NCBI GenBank assembly: GCA_022510785.1
Contig: JAFLSV010000004.1
Location: forward strand, 72,106-136,105
Source: Desulfovibrionaceae bacterium
Lineage (GTDB): Bacteria > Desulfobacterota > Desulfovibrionia > Desulfovibrionales > Desulfovibrionaceae
DNA length: 64,000 bases
Direction of reading: 5' to 3'
Of this stretch, positions 3,112-40,587 are shown one piece after another; within the stretch, counting starts at the first letter, position 1; each line of letters starts with the position of its first letter. The translations under genes and the position numbers were made by a program. The notes beneath the pieces were generated by a model, which worked only from the letters and a program-made list of their open reading frames with translations, searched no databases and had not been told where the DNA came from.

Positions 3112-3957
3112 ATGATGGAACTCATAAAAAATCACAGCTATGACGAGGAACGGGCCTTGTATGGCGTTCGTCATGTTCATCTTGTGAACTGCGCTTTTTC
3201 CGGGCCGGCGGATGGAGAAAGCGCCGTCAAGGAAGCCTCGGATGTTGTGGCCGAAGGCTGTTTTTTTGACCTGCGCTATCCCTTCTGGCATGTGCAGCGG
3301 CTGAGTATCCGGCAGTGCCGCATGTCCGAGGGGTGCCGGGCGGCGTTGTGGTATTCTGGGCAGATCACCGCTGCGGAAAGTGAACTGCATGGAATTAAGG
3401 TATTTCGTGAATGCCGGGATGTGACCGTCCGTGACTGTGATATCAAATCCCATGAGGCCGGCTGGTTTTCCCGCGGGTTTGTGATGGAAAAATGCGTGGT
3501 GGAAAGTGATTATTTTATGTTAAATAGCAAAAATCTTAAATTGAGCGATGTGAGATTCAAGGGAAAATATGCCTTGCAATATCTGCAAGATTCTGTTTTT
3601 GAAAATTGCGATATCACCAGCCGGGATGCTTTTTGGCATGCTCGGAATGTTACCGTCAAAAACAGCGTGCTCCGCGGGGAATTCCTTGGCTGGTATTCCG
3701 ACAATCTTATTCTTGAAAATTGCCGGATACTCAGCTCTCAACCCTTATGTTACTGCACAAACCTGAAGCTTATGAATTGCGAAATTATTGATTCGGATCT
3801 TTGCTTTGAGAAGTCGGATGTGGACGCGGTTATCACAACTTCTGTTGACAGTATTAAAAATCCCCGATCAGGACGAATTGTGGCTCCATTTGTGGAAGAA
3901 ATTATCCGTGATGATGAAAATTCCAAGGCTGAAATTTTTGTGACAGGTCAGCAATGA
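3112..3957 (+). CDS. DUF3737-like right-handed beta-helix protein
   Basis: 281 aa with repeated ~20-residue turns (VTVRDCDI.., FVMEKCVV.., SVFENCDI.., VTVKNSVL.., LILENCRI.., LKLMNCEI..). Confidence 0.75.
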   Translation: MMELIKNHSYDEERALYGVRHVHLVNCAFSGPADGESAVKEASDVVAEGCFFDLRYPFWHVQRLSIRQCRMSEGCRAALWYSGQITAAESELHGIKVFRECRDVTVRDCDIKSHEAGWFSRGFVMEKCVVESDYFMLNSKNLKLSDVRFKGKYALQYLQDSVFENCDITSRDAFWHARNVTVKNSVLRGEFLGWYSDNLILENCRILSSQPLCYCTNLKLMNCEIIDSDLCFEKSDVDAVITTSVDSIKNPRSGRIVAPFVEEIIRDDENSKAEIFVTGQQ

Positions 3958-4032
3958 GTCGCCATGTGATTTGTCCAAACATTTGCTCCATGAACAGGCA
4001 TTCAATGCACCTTAACAGAAACGAAGAGGACT

Positions 4033-4908
4033 ATGCACATGTTTCACAAAAGTATCATATGTTGTCTGGGATTTGTGTTTGTTTTCTTATTGATTAATGT
4101 AGCCTGTGCTGAGCCGCAGGCCGCAGGAGACAATTTGGAAAGGATTGCCATAATGGAAAAGAATATGCAGAAATTTCTGGGCAGCGCGGAATCTTCACTT
4201 TCATCCACTGATGATCCTGATTTTGCCGCCATACGGGACAGGCTGATCTATGGTGAAATTGCGGATCGGGGATCATTGAGTGACACGCAGCGCGGGCTTA
4301 TTACCCTGGTTGTGCTGACAGCCAGCCAGACTCTGGATGATTTGAAAACGCATGTCAATGCTGCCTTGCGTGTTGGCGTAACTCCTGTGGAAATTAAGGA
4401 AGCGATATATCAGTGCGCTCCATACATTGGCTTCCCCAAAACGGAAGCTGCGCTGAAAAAAGTTAATGAGGTTTTTAACGAAAATAATATTCCTCTCCCG
4501 CTGGAAAGTCAGAGTACGGTTACGGAATCTTCCCGTTACGCGGATGGATTGAGTGTGCAAAAATCCATTTTTGGCGATGTCATAGACACTATGCATAAGG
4601 CGACGCCGGCGGGGCAGCTGCCCATTGTTCAAAATTATCTTTCCGCGTTTTGCTTTGGCGATATCTATACCAGAAAGGGTCTGGACCTGAAGACCCGGGA
4701 GCTTTTGACATTTTCCATCATTTCCGCCCTCGGTGGCTGCGAAAGTCAGGTTCGTTCCCATGTGCAGGCCAATGTGGCCGTGGGAAATTCCAAGCAAAAT
4801 CTGGTTGACGCGCTGGCGCAAAGTCTTCCCTGCATCGGTTTTCCCCGGACTCTCAATGCGCTGGCCTGCGTCAACAGCGTCATCCCCGAGCCTGATCAGG
4901 CAAAGTAA
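4033..4908 (+). CDS. Carboxymuconolactone decarboxylase family protein, two tandem domains, with signal peptide
   Basis: N-terminal hydrophobic signal MFHKSIICCLGFVFVFLLINVACA; two copies of the core (LITLVVLTASQTLDDLKTHVNAALRVGVTPVEIKEAIYQCAPYIGFPKTEAAL and LLTFSIISALGGCESQVRSHVQANVAVGNSKQNLVDALAQSLPCIGFPRTLNAL). Confidence 0.88.
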   Translation: MHMFHKSIICCLGFVFVFLLINVACAEPQAAGDNLERIAIMEKNMQKFLGSAESSLSSTDDPDFAAIRDRLIYGEIADRGSLSDTQRGLITLVVLTASQTLDDLKTHVNAALRVGVTPVEIKEAIYQCAPYIGFPKTEAALKKVNEVFNENNIPLPLESQSTVTESSRYADGLSVQKSIFGDVIDTMHKATPAGQLPIVQNYLSAFCFGDIYTRKGLDLKTRELLTFSIISALGGCESQVRSHVQANVAVGNSKQNLVDALAQSLPCIGFPRTLNALACVNSVIPEPDQAK

Positions 4909-5041
4909 GCTTTGATGATGCAAACGATACGCCATTTTTCCGAAAAAATTTGAACCCCCATGCGCATGATGGCCTGGCGCGTGCGGAATGCGGAGCATGG
5001 CGGATGCGTGTGGCTTTTCGGTGACCCATGGGGCATGAGGG

Positions 5042-5072
5042 ACGACGAGCGCCCGTCACGGGCGCTCGTCGT
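5042..5072. terminator. Hairpin between convergent genes (possible bidirectional terminator, no T-tract)
   Basis: Perfect 13-bp inverted repeat acgacgagcgccc-gtcac-gggcgctcgtcgt between genes ending at 4908 (+) and 5106 (-). Confidence 0.55.
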
Positions 5073-5105
5073 ATGTGCCGGCCTGGGGCTTTGTGCCGGG
5101 CAGGC

Positions 5106-6017
5106 TCACGTTCCCGGCGAGCGGCGGCGTTTTCTGTCCCGCAGGGGAGGTTCGCCGAATATTCGCTTATATTCTCTGGTGAACTGGGTAACGCTGCCAT
5201 ATCCCACGCTTAAAGCCGCGCTGGAAGCCCGTTCGTTTTCCACCAGCATAAGGCGCTGCGCTTCATGCAGGCGCAATTGCTTTTGATATTGCAAGGGGCT
5301 GAGCCCTGTGAGCATTTTAAAACGCCGGTGCAGGTTTGCCGTTGACATATTGACCTGCCTGGCCAGCTCGTCGATGCGCATGGGGATTTTATAGTTTTTT
5401 CGTATCCAGCGTATGGCCTGGACAATCTGATGGTTTTGAGTGCCTGGCATGTTCAGTTGCCGCAAAATATTTCCATGGGGGCTTATAAGCAGAAGATAAT
5501 GAAGCTCATGCAGCATCATGGGTGCGCGAAGCGCTATTTGTTTGGATTTTTCAAGCAGTTCTAACATACGGAGGAACATTTCCAGAATATCTTCATTGGT
5601 ATCAGTGATTGAAATACTTGTATCTGATTGTATATTTTCAGGAAAATCTTGTTTTATTTCCATGGATAAAGAGGAAAGATATTGAGTATCAAGATAAAGA
5701 TAAAGAAAAAGAAAAGGTTTTTCCGGTGTGGCATGCATGACATAGGACGATATAGGCATATCCACACCGGCGACAATGCTCTGATTTTCCGTATAGATAT
5801 ACTCCCTGCCTCCCATGAGGGAATGCTTGGTTCCCTGAATGACAAGCCCGACCATGGGCTTTTCAAAGCAGCTTTCCGGCGCTCCTGTCTGGTCACGCCG
5901 GGCGAGGTGAAAACCTGGAATGGCTGTGGGGCAGATGCAGGGGCGCTTCAGATGCCGCAGCAGTTTATGCTTGAGTTCGTCATGAAGGTACGCGATTCGC
6001 GGCGCATGTTCCGTCAT
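5106..6017 (-). CDS. AraC-family transcriptional regulator with AraC N-terminal ligand domain
   Basis: C-terminal double HTH (RIDELARQVNMSTANLHRRFKMLTGLSPLQYQKQLRLHEAQRLM ... VGYGSVTQFTREYKRIFGEPP). Confidence 0.92.
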   Translation of the reverse strand: MTEHAPRIAYLHDELKHKLLRHLKRPCICPTAIPGFHLARRDQTGAPESCFEKPMVGLVIQGTKHSLMGGREYIYTENQSIVAGVDMPISSYVMHATPEKPFLFLYLYLDTQYLSSLSMEIKQDFPENIQSDTSISITDTNEDILEMFLRMLELLEKSKQIALRAPMMLHELHYLLLISPHGNILRQLNMPGTQNHQIVQAIRWIRKNYKIPMRIDELARQVNMSTANLHRRFKMLTGLSPLQYQKQLRLHEAQRLMLVENERASSAALSVGYGSVTQFTREYKRIFGEPPLRDRKRRRSPGT

Positions 6018-34560: not shown

Positions 34561-35301
34561 ATGCCCATGAACGATATCCAGAAGGTCAGCATTGTTGTTC
34601 CGGTCTTCAACGAGGAAGGCAACGTGGAGCCGCTTGTTGGGGAAATTGCCGCCGCCATGAACCCGCTGGATACGGATTGGGAACTGTGGCTGGTGGATGA
34701 CGGCAGCACCGATGCCAGTCTGGATCGCATCCGGGGCCTGTGCGGGCGCGAGCCTCACGCCGGTTTTCTGTCGTTCCACCGCAATCGGGGGCAGTCGGCC
34801 GCGTTTGGCGCGGGCTTCGAGGCCGCCACGGGGGATGTGATTGTCACCCTGGACGCCGACCTTCAGAACGATCCGGCTGATATTCCCACCCTACTGGACG
34901 TCTACCGCCAGGATGCCGACATGGTCATCGGCTGGCGGGTGAATCGCCGGGACGATTCCCGGCGGCGCCTGGCGTCACGGCTGGGCAACGCCGTGCGCAA
35001 TGCCCTCACGGCGGAAACCGTGCACGACACGGGCTGTTCCCTCAAGGTCATGCGGGCCTCTCTGGCCCGGCGGCTGCCCATGTTCCGGGGCATGCACCGT
35101 TTTTTGCCCACCCTGATGAAAATGTACGGGGCCCGGGTGGTGGAAGTGCCCGTGAACCACCGCCCGCGGCACAGCGGGGTTTCCAAGTACGGCGCGTTCA
35201 GCCGGGGGCTGGAGGCTTCGCAGGATTTGCTGGCGGTCAACTGGATGCTGCGGCGCTATCGCCCGGGCGAGGTGTCGGAGCGCCGGGATCCCCATGCCTG
35301 A
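34561..35301 (+). CDS. Family 2 glycosyltransferase (DPM/ArnC-like)
   Basis: SIVVPVFNEEGNVEPL, WLVDDGSTDASLDRI, DVIVTLDADLQNDPADIP. Confidence 0.94.
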   Translation: MPMNDIQKVSIVVPVFNEEGNVEPLVGEIAAAMNPLDTDWELWLVDDGSTDASLDRIRGLCGREPHAGFLSFHRNRGQSAAFGAGFEAATGDVIVTLDADLQNDPADIPTLLDVYRQDADMVIGWRVNRRDDSRRRLASRLGNAVRNALTAETVHDTGCSLKVMRASLARRLPMFRGMHRFLPTLMKMYGARVVEVPVNHRPRHSGVSKYGAFSRGLEASQDLLAVNWMLRRYRPGEVSERRDPHA

Positions 35302-35551
35302 TGTTTCCCCGCTGCTTTTTGTGACCTGTGTCACCGTTCAGGCCCTGTGCTTCGCGCTGGTGTGGCTCGCGCCGCGCCGCGTGCCGCGGGGGCTCCTGCG
35401 GGCGCTGCTTCTGATTTCGGCCACGATCATCGCCCTGTGTGCCTCGCATGACGCGGATTATACCCTGCTGGCCGGAGAGGCGCTGCTGGGCGCGGCGGGC
35501 TGGATTATGACCGGAGCGTATGGATGTGAAAGCGCGGGGAGGCGTGTGTGA
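35294..35551 (+). CDS. Small membrane protein
   Basis: 85 aa, hydrophobic; overlaps the GT2 gene by 8 nt and the next gene by 4 nt (gtga). Confidence 0.65.
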   Translation: MPDVSPLLFVTCVTVQALCFALVWLAPRRVPRGLLRALLLISATIIALCASHDADYTLLAGEALLGAAGWIMTGAYGCESAGRRV

Positions 35552-36234
35552 GCGCCCTGTCCTTCCCCCGCCTGCTCAAGGGGGCAAGCCTGTTCGCGGT
35601 TCTGGCCGCTGCGCTGCTGGTGGCCCGGGCCGTGGAGCCCGGCGCGGAAAGCTGTTCCCGCTTTGTGGACGAGCATATCCGGGCCCACGGTCTGACGGGT
35701 GTGGCCCTGTACCTGGGCCTGACAGCCCTTCTTACCTGCGTGGGCGTGCCGCGCCAGATGCTCAGCCTGGCAGGAGGCTACGCTTTTGGTGCCCTGTGGG
35801 GCACGGCATGGGCCACGGCGGGGGTCACGGCCGGCTGCGTGCTGTCCTTCAGCTACGCGCGTTTTCTGGGGCAGGGTTTTGTGCAGCGGCGTTTTGGGCA
35901 TCGCATTGCCCCTCTGGAAAAATTTCTGGCCCGTTCGCCGCTGCTCATGACCTTCATCATTCGATCCCTGCCGGTGGGCAACAATCTGGTGACCAATATC
36001 CTGGCCGGGGTGAGCCGTATTCCGGCCCTGCCCTTTTTCACGGGCTCCTGTCTGGGCTATATCGCGCAGAATTTCATTTTTGCTTTGCTTGGCAGCGGCG
36101 CGCGCGTCGATCCCTTCTGGCGCACGGCCATCAGCGCGGCCCTGTTCGTGCTCGCCTCGTTGCTCGGGGTCTGGCTGTACCGCCGCTACAGGGCGGATGT
36201 GGAGACTATGGCCCGACCCGGGCGGGGGGAGTGA
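35548..36234 (+). CDS. TVP38/TMEM64 (DedA/VTT) family membrane protein
   Basis: LSLAGGYAFGALWGTAWATAGVTAGCVLSFSYARFLG ... RSLPVGNNLVTNILAGVSRIPALPFFTGSCLGYIAQN. GTG start. Confidence 0.88.
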   Translation: MSALSFPRLLKGASLFAVLAAALLVARAVEPGAESCSRFVDEHIRAHGLTGVALYLGLTALLTCVGVPRQMLSLAGGYAFGALWGTAWATAGVTAGCVLSFSYARFLGQGFVQRRFGHRIAPLEKFLARSPLLMTFIIRSLPVGNNLVTNILAGVSRIPALPFFTGSCLGYIAQNFIFALLGSGARVDPFWRTAISAALFVLASLLGVWLYRRYRADVETMARPGRGE

Positions 36235-36390
36235 CGTCCCCGGGCGGAGCCCGCGTGAGGGGGGGCGTTCGCGCTTAGAGAGGGTGATCGCACCGCTGCG
36301 GACGTCACACACATCCGTCAGGCGGGGGCATCTGTCTTTGGCGGGCGGCCCTGCCGCCCGCCCCTGGCATGCAGACTGAAGGAGACCATC

Positions 36391-36723
36391 ATGCTGCTGG
36401 AAATGGGACTCATCGCGGCGGGTATTCCCGCCGGATACGTCCTGCGCCGGAAGGAAAGGGCCCGGGCCGTGGCGGCGCGGCTTCTGACCCGGGCCGTATG
36501 GGCGCTGCTGTTTGTGCTGGGCCTTGCCGTGGGCTCGGATTCCATGCTTTTGGAGCAACTGAGCCGCCTGGGCGTGCGCGCGGCCGTCATCAGCGCCCTG
36601 TCCGTGGCGGGCTGTCTTGTCGCCGCGCGCCTGGCCGCGCTCTGGCTGAACCTGGATGCGGGGACGCCGTCAGACGCGGAATCCTCCGCCGGCCCGTCGG
36701 CGCACCGGGGGCCATCGGCATGA
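36391..36723 (+). CDS. lysO: LysO-type lysine exporter, N-terminal half
   Basis: DUF340 N-terminal pattern (IAAGIPAGYVLRR..., LLTRAVWALLFVLGLAVGSDSMLLEQLSRLGVRA). Confidence 0.75.
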   Translation: MLLEMGLIAAGIPAGYVLRRKERARAVAARLLTRAVWALLFVLGLAVGSDSMLLEQLSRLGVRAAVISALSVAGCLVAARLAALWLNLDAGTPSDAESSAGPSAHRGPSA

Positions 36724-37337
36724 AGGGCTCGCTGCTGGTTCTCGGCTTTTTTTTCGCCGGGGTCTTCGCCGGGTGGCGGCACTGGCTGCCGCGCGCCGTG
36801 GCCGAAAGCGACGCCGCCCTGTGGATACTGTATATTCTCCTGTTCTGCGCGGGTATGGGGGTGGGTTTTGATCTCAGGGCACTGGCGGTTATCCGGCAGC
36901 TCAAGGCGCGGATTCTGCTCATACCGGCGGGGGTGGCGGCCGGCACGCTTGCGGGCAGCGCCCTGGCCTGGGCGCTGCTCGGGCTTTTTGGCGCGGATCT
37001 GTCCCTGCCGGACAGCCTGGCCGTGGGCGCGGGCTTCGGCTACTACAGCCTGGCCACGGTGATTATCACCCAGCTCGGGGATCCCTCCCTGGGGTCGGTG
37101 GCCCTGCTGTCCAACATGATCCGCGAAATTCTCACCCTCACCCTGTCCCCGCTGTTCGTGCGGGCGTCGGGCCGGCTGGGGCCGGTCATGGCCGGAGGGG
37201 CGGCGGCCATGGACACCTGCCTGCCGGTCATCGCCCGCGTGAGCGGGGAGCGCTGCGCCATTGTGGCCGTATTTTCGGGCATGGCGCTGACCCTGCTGGT
37301 GCCCGTGCTGGTGCCGGCCATCATGGCCTTGCGCTGA
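36720..37337 (+). CDS. lysO: LysO-type lysine exporter, C-terminal half
   Basis: ILYILLFCAGMGVGFDLRALAVIRQL, GFGYYSLATVIITQL, LLSNMIREILTL, GAAAMDTCLPVI; atga overlap with the preceding ORF. Confidence 0.85.
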   Translation: MKGSLLVLGFFFAGVFAGWRHWLPRAVAESDAALWILYILLFCAGMGVGFDLRALAVIRQLKARILLIPAGVAAGTLAGSALAWALLGLFGADLSLPDSLAVGAGFGYYSLATVIITQLGDPSLGSVALLSNMIREILTLTLSPLFVRASGRLGPVMAGGAAAMDTCLPVIARVSGERCAIVAVFSGMALTLLVPVLVPAIMALR

Positions 37338-37366
37338 TATGTGCGTTCATTGTAAGTTAACTATTA

Positions 37367-38470
37367 TTACAGGAAAAAGAAAATAATATTGAAGATAGAG
37401 GCAATAAATTTAAATATAAATTTTATAATATTTAAAATAAAACTGAATATACCAGAAATAAAATTTAATATGCTTGAAATAAAACCAATTATGCCAGAAT
37501 CAAAAAGAAAATTTACAATTCCAATAATAATTACCAGAAGAAAAATAATCATCAGAATGATATCTTTGGTGCTGAGTGGCTCGGTGTCACCTGATGAAGA
37601 TTGTGCCCGCTCGGCACGTGCCCGCTCCCGTGCTTGCTTGCGTGCTTGTTTGGCACGTGAGCAATATACATTATGGTGTGAGCGTATGGAATTTAAAAGT
37701 TCTTCCTCGTCGATATGGTTAGCGTCAAACACAGAATCTGTGAGTTCTTCGGAAATATTGAACCTCTTATACATGATTGACACTTTAAAATGCCCCAAAT
37801 TTTCTTCTTCTTGGTCATATTCATAGGCATATGAGAATTCAATATTTAATAAAACTGTTTCAGCTCTATCCATTTTTTTAGAACTTTTAATCTGTTCGAA
37901 TAATTCTGCGTCTGATATTCCTTTTGAATAATGGGAATGTGACATATAAAAAGAACGTGGAGTTTCCATTTTTTTGCATGAATAATGTGGCATATATTTA
38001 GGTAATCCATCAAGAACACCATGCCCCCATATTTTAAATTTTGCAAATTCGAGATCTTTAAATACACGATGGATATCATCTATAGTGGATATAGACTCAT
38101 TGTCTTTTTTATAAAGCTCAATATATGCTTGAGCAAGATAAATTTGTTGATTGATAATATATTTTTCACATTTACTTTCTATTTTACTAGATATTCCAGA
38201 ACCAAAGATAACTGAAGCTGGTAAGGATACATAGATATTATTTTTGTGACAAGAGCTGTCATCAAATTTCCTGAGATAAAAATTTGGACTCATGATGACC
38301 ATATTAGTTTTTTCAGTTTTGTCATAAAGCTCTTTGACAAATTTTTCTGCAATATATTTCATATAGGTTATTGTTTTATCATAGAAGTCAGAATCAATCT
38401 TGTCCATGTCTTTTTCTTTTTTATGAATTTGGGAGGAATTCACATGAGAAGGGTGCTGGGAGCCTGACAT
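37367..38470 (-). CDS. Orphan accessory protein: soluble domain, A/R/E/K linker, TM and heptad-repeat hydrophobic tail
   Basis: 367 aa intact ORF in strongly AT-rich DNA; aggaga upstream of the ATG; AT-rich codon use; tail DIILMIIFLLVIIIGIVNFLF then FISSILN-FISGIFS-FILNIIK-FIFKFIA-SIFNIIF. Confidence 0.8.
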   Translation of the reverse strand: MSGSQHPSHVNSSQIHKKEKDMDKIDSDFYDKTITYMKYIAEKFVKELYDKTEKTNMVIMSPNFYLRKFDDSSCHKNNIYVSLPASVIFGSGISSKIESKCEKYIINQQIYLAQAYIELYKKDNESISTIDDIHRVFKDLEFAKFKIWGHGVLDGLPKYMPHYSCKKMETPRSFYMSHSHYSKGISDAELFEQIKSSKKMDRAETVLLNIEFSYAYEYDQEEENLGHFKVSIMYKRFNISEELTDSVFDANHIDEEELLNSIRSHHNVYCSRAKQARKQARERARAERAQSSSGDTEPLSTKDIILMIIFLLVIIIGIVNFLFDSGIIGFISSILNFISGIFSFILNIIKFIFKFIASIFNIIFFFL

Positions 38471-38706
38471 GGTTTCTCCTGGAAGGGCGGTTCAAAATTC
38501 TTGTTTGTTTTTCTGAATTAAAACAATATATTCTGTTTCAGAGTATGATAGGATGCCCATAGGAAACGGACTTGTTCCAGGCTGTTATACGTTCCCATAT
38601 GAGCAGAGGCAAGGGAAACCTTCAATGTGCTCCCGTGATGTATGCGCCCTGCGCGCCTTGACCATGTCCGGCCGGGGGACTACAACTTGACACCCAACGG
38701 AAGATC

Positions 38707-38807
38707 CCGGCTGCCGGCATTGCCGGCGGCCGGAATAAGCGGGAAAGCGGGCGGCGGCCTGGCCGCCGCTGGCGGAGCAAGCCCCGGTGCGCGGGGTCTG
38801 CCGCCAG
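38707..38807 (+). promoter_or_regulatory. Three consecutive strong hairpins in the pyrK leader
   Basis: ccggctgccggc-att-gccggcggccgg (38707-38733); gcggcggcc-t-ggccgccgc (38751-38769); ctggcgg-agcaag-ccccg-gtgcg-cgggg-tctg-ccgccag (38769-38807). Confidence 0.5.
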
Positions 38808-38827
38808 TCCGAGAACGGGAGGTTGCC

Positions 38828-39664
38828 ATGATATCCCCAGGCCGCGCCGAACTGACGGTGACGGACAATGTTCCCTTCGGGGAAACCGGCCAGCGCAGCC
38901 TGCATGCGCTTACTCTGGAACATCCCGGCTGGAGCGAATGGCACCCCGGCCAGTTTGTCATGCTGCGCCCAAAGTCGTGGGGGCAGGATATGACCTGGGC
39001 CCGGCCGCTTTCCATCTGCCGGGTCACGCCCCGGGGGCTGGTTCTCTTTTTTCAGGTGGTGGGCCGTGGCACCGAACGCATGGCCCGTTTGCGCGCGGGC
39101 GACAGGGTGATCCTGTGGGGGCCGCTGGGCACCGGCTTCGCCGTGGAGGCGCGCACGCCCACCCTGCTTCTGGCCGGGGGCATCGGCATTGCGCCCTTCG
39201 CGGGCTATACCGATGTCCATCCCGAGCCGGCCCGGCTGTCCATGCTGTTCGGTCACAGCCTGCCGTCCTCATGCTACCCCACCGACGCCCTGGCCCGCCG
39301 TATCGGGCTGGAACGCTTCCGCGAGCGAAGCCCTGAGGATCTGCCCCGCTTTCAGGACATGGTGAAAAAACACATGAAGGACTGCGTGGAACGGAACGGG
39401 CTGGCCCTGGCCTGCGGGCCCATGCCCTTTTTGCGTTTTATCTGGCGCTATGCCCTGGAAATCGGCCTGCGCACCCAGCTTTCCCTGGAACAGCGCATGG
39501 CCTGCGGCGTGGGGGCCTGCCTGGGCTGCGTCAGTGTCACGTCGCGGCATTGGGCTGACCCGGAAAAGGCCGGTCTGCCCGTGCAAACCTGCACCAGCGG
39601 CCCCGTGTTCTGGGCCGCGGATCTTGACCTCGACGCCCGTATCGCGCAAGGGGGCGCAGCATGA
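38828..39664 (+). CDS. pyrK: Dihydroorotate dehydrogenase electron transfer subunit
   Basis: FAD/NAD module (LLLAGGIGIAPF) and C-terminal 2Fe-2S motif MACGVGACLGCVSVTSRHWADPEKAGLPVQTCTSGPVF. Confidence 0.93.
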   Translation: MISPGRAELTVTDNVPFGETGQRSLHALTLEHPGWSEWHPGQFVMLRPKSWGQDMTWARPLSICRVTPRGLVLFFQVVGRGTERMARLRAGDRVILWGPLGTGFAVEARTPTLLLAGGIGIAPFAGYTDVHPEPARLSMLFGHSLPSSCYPTDALARRIGLERFRERSPEDLPRFQDMVKKHMKDCVERNGLALACGPMPFLRFIWRYALEIGLRTQLSLEQRMACGVGACLGCVSVTSRHWADPEKAGLPVQTCTSGPVFWAADLDLDARIAQGGAA

Positions 39665-40587
39665 TGGATCTGAGCGTGACCCTGAGCGGCGGACTGCGTC
39701 CGCTGAAATTGAAAAATCCTGTCCTCAGCGCGTCCGGCACCTTCGGGTACGGTGAGGAATTTGCGCCCTACGGGGATATCACCCGCCTGGGCGCGGTCAT
39801 TGTCAAGGGTCTGTCGCTCAGGCCCCGCATGGGCAACCCCCTGCCGCGCGTGGCGGAAACGCCGTGCGGCATGCTCAATGCCGTGGGCCTGCAAAACGAT
39901 GGGGTGGAAGCCTTTCTGACCCGCAAGCTGCCCCGTTTGCCCTGGCGGGAAGTGCCTGTCATTGCCAACATCTACGCCGCGTCGACCGATGAGTTCGGCG
40001 AGCTGGCGGGCATTTTGTCCCATGAAGAGGGCGTGGCCGCGCTGGAAGTGAACATTTCGTGCCCCAATGTCCACGAGGGCGGCGTGCTGTTCGGCCAGAA
40101 CCCGGTCATGGCCGCCCGTGTGGTGGAGGCCGTCAAGGCGAGGGCGGGCAACAAGCCCGTCATGGTGAAGCTTTCGCCCAATGTGACGGATATCGCGGAA
40201 ATCGCCCGCGCCGCGGAGGACGCCGGAGCGGATGCCCTGTCGTGCATCAACACCGTGACCGGCATGGCCGTTGATCTCGCTTCGCGCCGTCCGCTGCTGG
40301 CCAATGTGGTGGGCGGCCTGTCCGGCCCGGCGATCAAGCCCGTGGCCCTGCGCTGTGTGTGGCAGGTATGCCGGGCCGTGGGCATCCCGGTTATCGGCGT
40401 GGGGGGCGTTGCCTCGGCCCGCGATGCGCTGGAGTTTCTGCTGGTGGGCGCGCACGCCGTGCAGGTGGGCACGGCGGGCTTTTCCGACCCTGCCGCCATT
40501 TTCCGCGTGGTGGACGAATTGCCCGGCCTGTGCGCCGATTTGGGCATCGACAGTCTGGACGGGTTCCGGGGCTCACTGCGCCTGTAA
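39661..40587 (+). CDS. pyrD: Dihydroorotate dehydrogenase (class 1B catalytic subunit)
   Basis: NPVLSASGTFGYGEEFAPYGDITRLGAVIVKGLSLRPRMGNP, NISCPNVHEGG, GVGGVASARDALEFLLVGAHAVQVGT; atga overlap with pyrK. Confidence 0.96.
   Translation: MMDLSVTLSGGLRPLKLKNPVLSASGTFGYGEEFAPYGDITRLGAVIVKGLSLRPRMGNPLPRVAETPCGMLNAVGLQNDGVEAFLTRKLPRLPWREVPVIANIYAASTDEFGELAGILSHEEGVAALEVNISCPNVHEGGVLFGQNPVMAARVVEAVKARAGNKPVMVKLSPNVTDIAEIARAAEDAGADALSCINTVTGMAVDLASRRPLLANVVGGLSGPAIKPVALRCVWQVCRAVGIPVIGVGGVASARDALEFLLVGAHAVQVGTAGFSDPAAIFRVVDELPGLCADLGIDSLDGFRGSLRL

What the first reader, a model, noticed from the sequence alone, without database searches (positions are those of the whole stretch)
37367..38470. AT-rich orphan gene inserted between lysO and pyrK
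The ORF is intact, has a good RBS and is far more AT-rich than its neighbours (by eye, 6 G/C in 37381-37440 and 14 G/C in 37441-37500). Its product has a Lys/Ser/Tyr-rich N-terminal domain, a basic A/R/E/K linker, a TM segment and a hydrophobic tail. I recognise no family. Soluble sensor plus membrane effector is an architecture seen in defence and toxin proteins, but that function is inference only.
Basis: partly seen in the sequence, partly recalled or inferred. Interest (0 to 1): 0.68.

Follow-up and report, generated by a model that had tools for sequence, protein, structure and literature searches.

The report
Acquired AT-rich membrane-protein ORFan gene
A single AT-rich gene with no detectable relatives, probably picked up from elsewhere, sits between two ordinary metabolic genes of a GC-rich bacterium and encodes a protein with a soluble front half and a greasy, membrane-seeking tail; what it does is not known, so it is a good but fairly ordinary orphan gene.

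Summary
Window 37367-38470 on the minus strand is an intact 367-codon ORF with an AGGAGA ribosome-binding site. Its G+C is 0.32 (third positions 0.27) in a window averaging 0.64, and its codon usage is foreign. LysO and PyrK on either side are confirmed by Pfam.

No relative was found in Pfam, PADLOC, NCBIfam, PHROGs, the PDB, plasmids, phages, pattern scans of IMG/VR and GTDB contigs, or four overlapping whole-genome samples of 99 to 395 genomes, including all 18 held congeners. It is a true ORFan at this sensitivity.

"Inserted between lysO and pyrK" is only partly supported. No congener has lysO next to pyrK. Fourteen of 17 keep rnj-mntP-pyrK-pyrD, and the junction is rearranged in this genome's clade. 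No empty site can be shown, nor a target duplication, tRNA or integrase.

The protein has a soluble domain whose fold AlphaFold could not resolve, a basic linker, one TM helix and a 41-residue amphipathic helix built partly from 21-bp repeats. That geometry is real. Defence or toxin function is an untested guess. Similar AT-rich accessory genes are common elsewhere in the genome. Verdict: a lineage-specific acquired ORFan, modest interest.

The parts
37367..38470 (-). ORFan coding sequence, 367 aa (ATG at 38470, TAA ending at 37367)
   Evidence: composition; no homologue
38474..38479 (-). ribosome-binding site AGGAGA, four bases upstream of the ATG
   Evidence: read from sequence
37727..38407 (-). 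soluble N-terminal domain (residues about 22-248), predicted alpha/beta in two low-confidence runs, fold unresolved
   Evidence: mean pLDDT 49 for the whole protein, 40 for this part
37574..37660 (-). Ala/Arg/Glu/Lys linker (residues about 271-299), locally G+C-rich
37499..37570 (-). predicted transmembrane helix, residues 301-324
   Evidence: hydropathy; helix at 301-324
37370..37492 (-). C-terminal amphipathic hydrophobic helix, residues 327-367
   Evidence: helical moment peak at 101 degrees, 0 of 20000 shuffles as strong at the 3.5-residue period; helix 327-366 with pLDDT about 76-96
37435..37499 (-). 21-bp degenerate tandem repeats (3.1 copies) encoding heptads of the tail
36391..37337 (+). 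left neighbour: two-part lysine exporter LysO (36391-36723 and 36720-37337)
   Evidence: Pfam PF03956
38828..39664 (+). right neighbour: pyrK, followed by pyrD (39661-40587)
   Evidence: Pfam PF10418 and PF01180

Best explanation
The gene is a recently acquired, single-gene accessory element ('AT-rich ORFan') that lodged at a rearranged junction of the chromosome in this lineage. It encodes a protein anchored in the inner membrane. An N-terminal domain of about 230 residues sits in the cytoplasm, which I infer from the basic linker just before the TM helix by the positive-inside rule. One TM helix anchors it. A 41-residue amphipathic helix at the C-terminus then lies in, or inserts into, the bilayer, or packs with copies of itself along its narrow polar face. 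The most likely way it works is that the soluble domain controls the assembly of this membrane tail, and assembly perturbs the membrane, as in known membrane-acting defence or toxin proteins. Shown: coding, foreign composition, absence in relatives, and predicted helix geometry. Inferred: membrane topology, oligomerisation, and any effect on cells.
For: Open frame with chance 3e-13. G+C 0.32 and foreign codon usage. No match in 18 congeners, or in the family, class and phylum samples. TM helix and tail helix predicted from sequence alone at high pLDDT. Strong helical periodicity of the tail, which is partly made of 21-bp repeats. Junction rearranged in this clade. Comparable AT-rich accessory genes occur elsewhere in the same genome.
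Against: No homologue, fold or neighbour supports membrane damage or defence; that step rests on architecture only. AT-rich DNA by itself tends to encode F/I/L/N/K, so a hydrophobic tail could be a by-product of composition, although the periodicity is not expected from composition. No integrase on the contig, no flanking repeats, no empty site.
Confidence: 0.4

Rival explanations
1. Phage-derived 'moron' or superinfection-exclusion protein: a gene left by a phage, anchored in the inner membrane, that blocks DNA entry of related phages. The tail then works like the membrane-inserting hydrophobic stretches of phage proteins.
For: AT-rich ORFans are often of phage origin (general knowledge); membrane-anchored architecture; seven integrase matches elsewhere in the genome show mobile elements are present.
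Against: No match in 50,697 phage records, PHROGs above noise or pattern scans of IMG/VR. No phage genes recognised around it and no integrase on the contig.
Confidence: 0.2
2. A secreted effector or surface protein acting on a eukaryotic host or another bacterium, with a Ser/His-rich disordered N-terminus and a hydrophobic membrane-inserting C-terminus.
For: Polar, probably disordered residues 1-22 and a hydrophobic C-terminus.
Against: No signal peptide seen by eye in the sequence; no secretion-system genes recognised near it in the ORF list; no family match. Secretion systems of the genome were not surveyed.
Confidence: 0.1
3. A neutral passenger: an acquired or de novo AT-rich frame in transit, without a selected function, whose repetitive tail grew by slippage.
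For: Single species, no homologues; degenerate 21-bp repeats; low-complexity tail.
Against: A 367-codon frame kept open with probability about 3e-13 at this composition, with a good RBS; ordered helical periodicity. Selection (dN/dS) could not be tested for lack of any relative.
Confidence: 0.25
4. Assembly artefact: a foreign fragment joined into the contig.
For: The host genome is a 55-contig draft assembly.
Against: The fragment is embedded between G+C-rich flanks on a 136-kb contig, with only about 1.2 kb of low G+C; genes of both flanks have close matches throughout the same genus.
Confidence: 0.05

Closest known systems
Lineage-specific AT-rich ORFans acquired by horizontal transfer
   Same: Low G+C, single gene, no homologues, absent from all relatives searched, intact frame.
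   Different: At 367 aa it is longer than I would expect of such a gene (from memory), and it has a defined membrane architecture.
Soluble-domain plus transmembrane effectors of defence systems (for example Cap1 of type III-A CRISPR-Cas, abstract of PMC12642688)
   Same: Soluble domain joined to membrane helices.
   Different: The paper's abstract lists a pair of TM helices (TM1/2) plus a CARF-like domain; here a single TM is followed by a long amphipathic helix at the C-terminus, no PADLOC or Pfam domain is found, and no signal-producing partner gene is recognised nearby.
Membrane-inserting amphipathic stretches of phage proteins (tape measure proteins, holins), from memory
   Same: Repeated F/I-rich helical units with a polar stripe.
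   Different: No sequence match to PHROGs above noise or to phage records; different context and N-terminal domain.

Membership tests
Horizontally acquired AT-rich ORFan | composition and codon usage foreign to the host | tested here: met
   G+C 0.32, GC3 0.27, codon index 0.35 against 0.54-0.76
Horizontally acquired AT-rich ORFan | absent from close relatives | tested here: met
   0 of 18 congeners and 0 of the other class and phylum genomes sampled at E <= 0.001; in the family, searched to E = 1, only TM or linker noise, best E = 0.003
Horizontally acquired AT-rich ORFan | empty site in colinear relatives or marks of integration | tested here: not met
   No congener has lysO next to pyrK; no direct repeats at the borders, no tRNA in the window, no integrase on the contig
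Known anti-phage defence protein | match to a defence family | tested here: not met
   PADLOC-DB 0 matches up to E = 1
Known anti-phage defence protein | partner or neighbouring defence genes | tested here: not met
   Neighbours are LysO, VTT-domain protein, glycosyltransferase, PyrK, PyrD, TopA; none recognised as a defence gene
Known anti-phage defence protein | protection against phage or conditional toxicity | not testable with these tools
   needs a bench test
Membrane-anchored protein with amphipathic C-terminal helix | TM segment and helical hydrophobic moment | tested here: met
   TM 301-324; moment peak at 101 degrees, 0 of 20000 shuffles at the 3.5-residue period; helix model
Phage-encoded protein | homologue in phages or phage gene context | tested here: not met

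The most novel reading that the evidence does not exclude
The gene founds a new family of stand-alone membrane effectors. An unrecognised cytoplasmic sensor fold triggers a repeat-built amphipathic helix that assembles in the membrane through its narrow polar stripe and kills or protects the cell.
Probability: 0.12. Interest if true: 0.65.

Novelty: new member of a known kind. Interest (0 to 1): 0.28.

Why it matters
If the gene is a membrane-acting defence or toxin protein, it would add a family that current sequence libraries miss entirely. If it is only an acquired ORFan, it is one more case of the pool of AT-rich, relative-less genes that enter and leave G+C-rich genomes. The slippage-prone 21-bp repeats of the tail offer a small, testable case of how a membrane helix can grow by repeat expansion.

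Tried and rejected
Pfam, PADLOC, NCBIfam: no match up to E = 1. PHROGs: two noise matches, E 0.03 and 0.13. PDB by sequence: two unrelated chains (X11/APBA family) at E 0.3-0.5, noise. Plasmids and phages by tblastn: none. Pattern scans of viral and genome contigs with different parts of the protein: none confirmed. Loosened whole-family search to E = 1: matches only to the TM/linker part of unrelated proteins; the leading ones were inspected and rejected. AlphaFold on the whole protein and on the soluble part: only the C-terminal helices are confident, soluble part pLDDT 40. Foldseek against viral and PDB libraries: best E 0.03-0.04 with rmsd above 20 A, meaningless at this confidence. A local inversion of the mntP-lysO segment was considered as the cause of the junction: it fits the gene order of the majority of the genus, but the two congeners closest by PyrK identity (G006, G017) have already lost the mntP-pyrK link, and G006 keeps the mfs-mntP-rnj order of the window, so the rearrangement looks older than this genome and is not tied to the gene. 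Rfam: nothing in 36000-40000. A tail paralogue in the same genome: none. Two paper searches gave only general background.

Full report
Observation. The reading frame at 37367-38470 on the minus strand is intact, ATG to TAA, 367 residues. It is preceded by AGGAGA four bases before the ATG. Its G+C is 0.32 (positions 0.39/0.29/0.27), against 0.59-0.70 for the neighbouring genes. Outside it, 1104-base windows average 0.644 with a minimum of 0.433. The chance of 367 open codons at this composition is about 3e-13, and codon usage is far from that of the other genes of the window (0.35 against 0.54-0.76). The low-G+C stretch runs from about 37350 to 38570; inside it the basic linker (37551-37650) has G+C 0.46-0.66, so the gene is a mosaic in composition. 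It is convergent with lysO, 29 bases between stop codons, and divergent from pyrK. Pfam confirms LysO (in two overlapping genes), PyrK, PyrD and a VTT-domain protein.

Relatives. Nothing related was found in Pfam, PADLOC-DB, NCBIfam, PHROGs above noise, or PDB sequences. Nothing was found in 72,556 plasmid and 50,697 phage records by tblastn, or in pattern scans of IMG/VR and of the GTDB contigs (these scans start from exact 8-residue stretches of the query and so see only close relatives). Whole-genome searches in 99 relatives including all 18 held congeners, 395 genomes across the phylum and 348 of the class found only the gene itself at E <= 0.001 (the samples overlap). In 288 genomes of the family, searched to E = 1, the only other matches were to the TM and linker part, the best at E = 0.003; the leading ones were inspected and are unrelated proteins. 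There is no second copy of the tail in the genome.

The site. pyrK has no lysO beside it in any of the 17 congeners where pyrK was found. In 14 of these 17 rnj lies just upstream of pyrK, with mntP between them where the gene could be read. In this genome and in the two congeners with the highest PyrK identity (G006 and G017, about 71%) that link is broken: a TRAP-transporter cluster precedes pyrK in G006, and an adenine-deaminase-like gene and cytochromes precede it in G017; the rnj-mntP block lies elsewhere (these gene names, and rnj and mntP, are read by eye from the translations). In G006 the left side of the window is preserved as murJ-ispH-cheV-lysO, followed by a different cluster. So the lysO-pyrK junction is peculiar to this lineage, and what follows lysO and what precedes pyrK both vary. 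An empty site cannot be shown, and there are no border repeats, no tRNA in the window and no integrase on the contig. 'Inserted' is therefore an inference from composition and absence. Low-G+C windows with ORFs of similar character occur in about 5% of the 500-base windows sampled from other stretches of the genome (39 of 744; most of these stretches are contig starts, which may enrich for mobile DNA), so the gene is one of a pool of AT-rich accessory genes and not a unique anomaly.

The protein. Residues 1-22 are polar. Residues 22-248 are predicted as mixed helix and strand in both AlphaFold runs, but at pLDDT near 40 without an alignment, so no fold can be read and the Foldseek results are meaningless. 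Residues 271-299 are a basic Ala/Arg/Glu/Lys linker. Residues 301-324 are a TM helix. Residues 327-367 form a hydrophobic helix with small or polar residues (Gly, Ser, Asn, Lys) on a narrow stripe. The hydropathy moment peaks at 101 degrees per residue, as in an alpha helix, and none of 20,000 shuffles reaches its strength at the 3.5-residue period. The heptads SGIIGFI-SSILNFI-SGIFSFI-LNIIKFI coincide with 21-base degenerate tandem repeats in the DNA. AT-rich DNA explains the hydrophobic residues but not this periodicity.

Mechanism. By the positive-inside rule the basic linker should place the N-terminal domain in the cytoplasm, with the TM crossing and the tail in or along the bilayer; a helix of 41 residues is too long for one crossing unless it lies flat or bends. 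The best guess is a regulated membrane-active protein, of which defence and toxin proteins are the usual examples; this part is inference only. A phage exclusion protein, a neutral passenger and an exported effector remain open. The neutral passenger cannot be tested here because no relative was found for dN/dS.

Verdict. It is a clean acquired ORFan with an unusual repeat-built membrane helix, of modest interest.

Noticed in passing
window 3112-6017: A milder low-G+C stretch (0.47-0.49) with a DUF3737 protein, a carboxymuconolactone decarboxylase-family protein and an AraC-type regulator: probably an acquired metabolic cassette.
   Followed up: partly
window 36391-37337: LysO is encoded as two overlapping genes (4-base overlap); separate N- and C-terminal matches also occur in the congeners where it was found.
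   Followed up: partly
L104:15110-15754 and L107:604-1170: Two similar AT-rich proteins (G+C 0.26-0.27) of unknown function on different contigs of the same genome, with a shared C-terminal motif around FREVxxGFYVxxxYNxxYHIxN.
   Followed up: no
L100:6298-9780: A 1160-aa AT-rich ORF near the start of contig C1, which also carries two integrase matches: a likely genomic island.
   Followed up: no
window 34561-36234: Glycosyltransferase, small protein and VTT-domain genes lie between cheV and lysO here; the matching gap in congener G006 is only about 340 bases, so they were gained here or lost there.
   Followed up: partly
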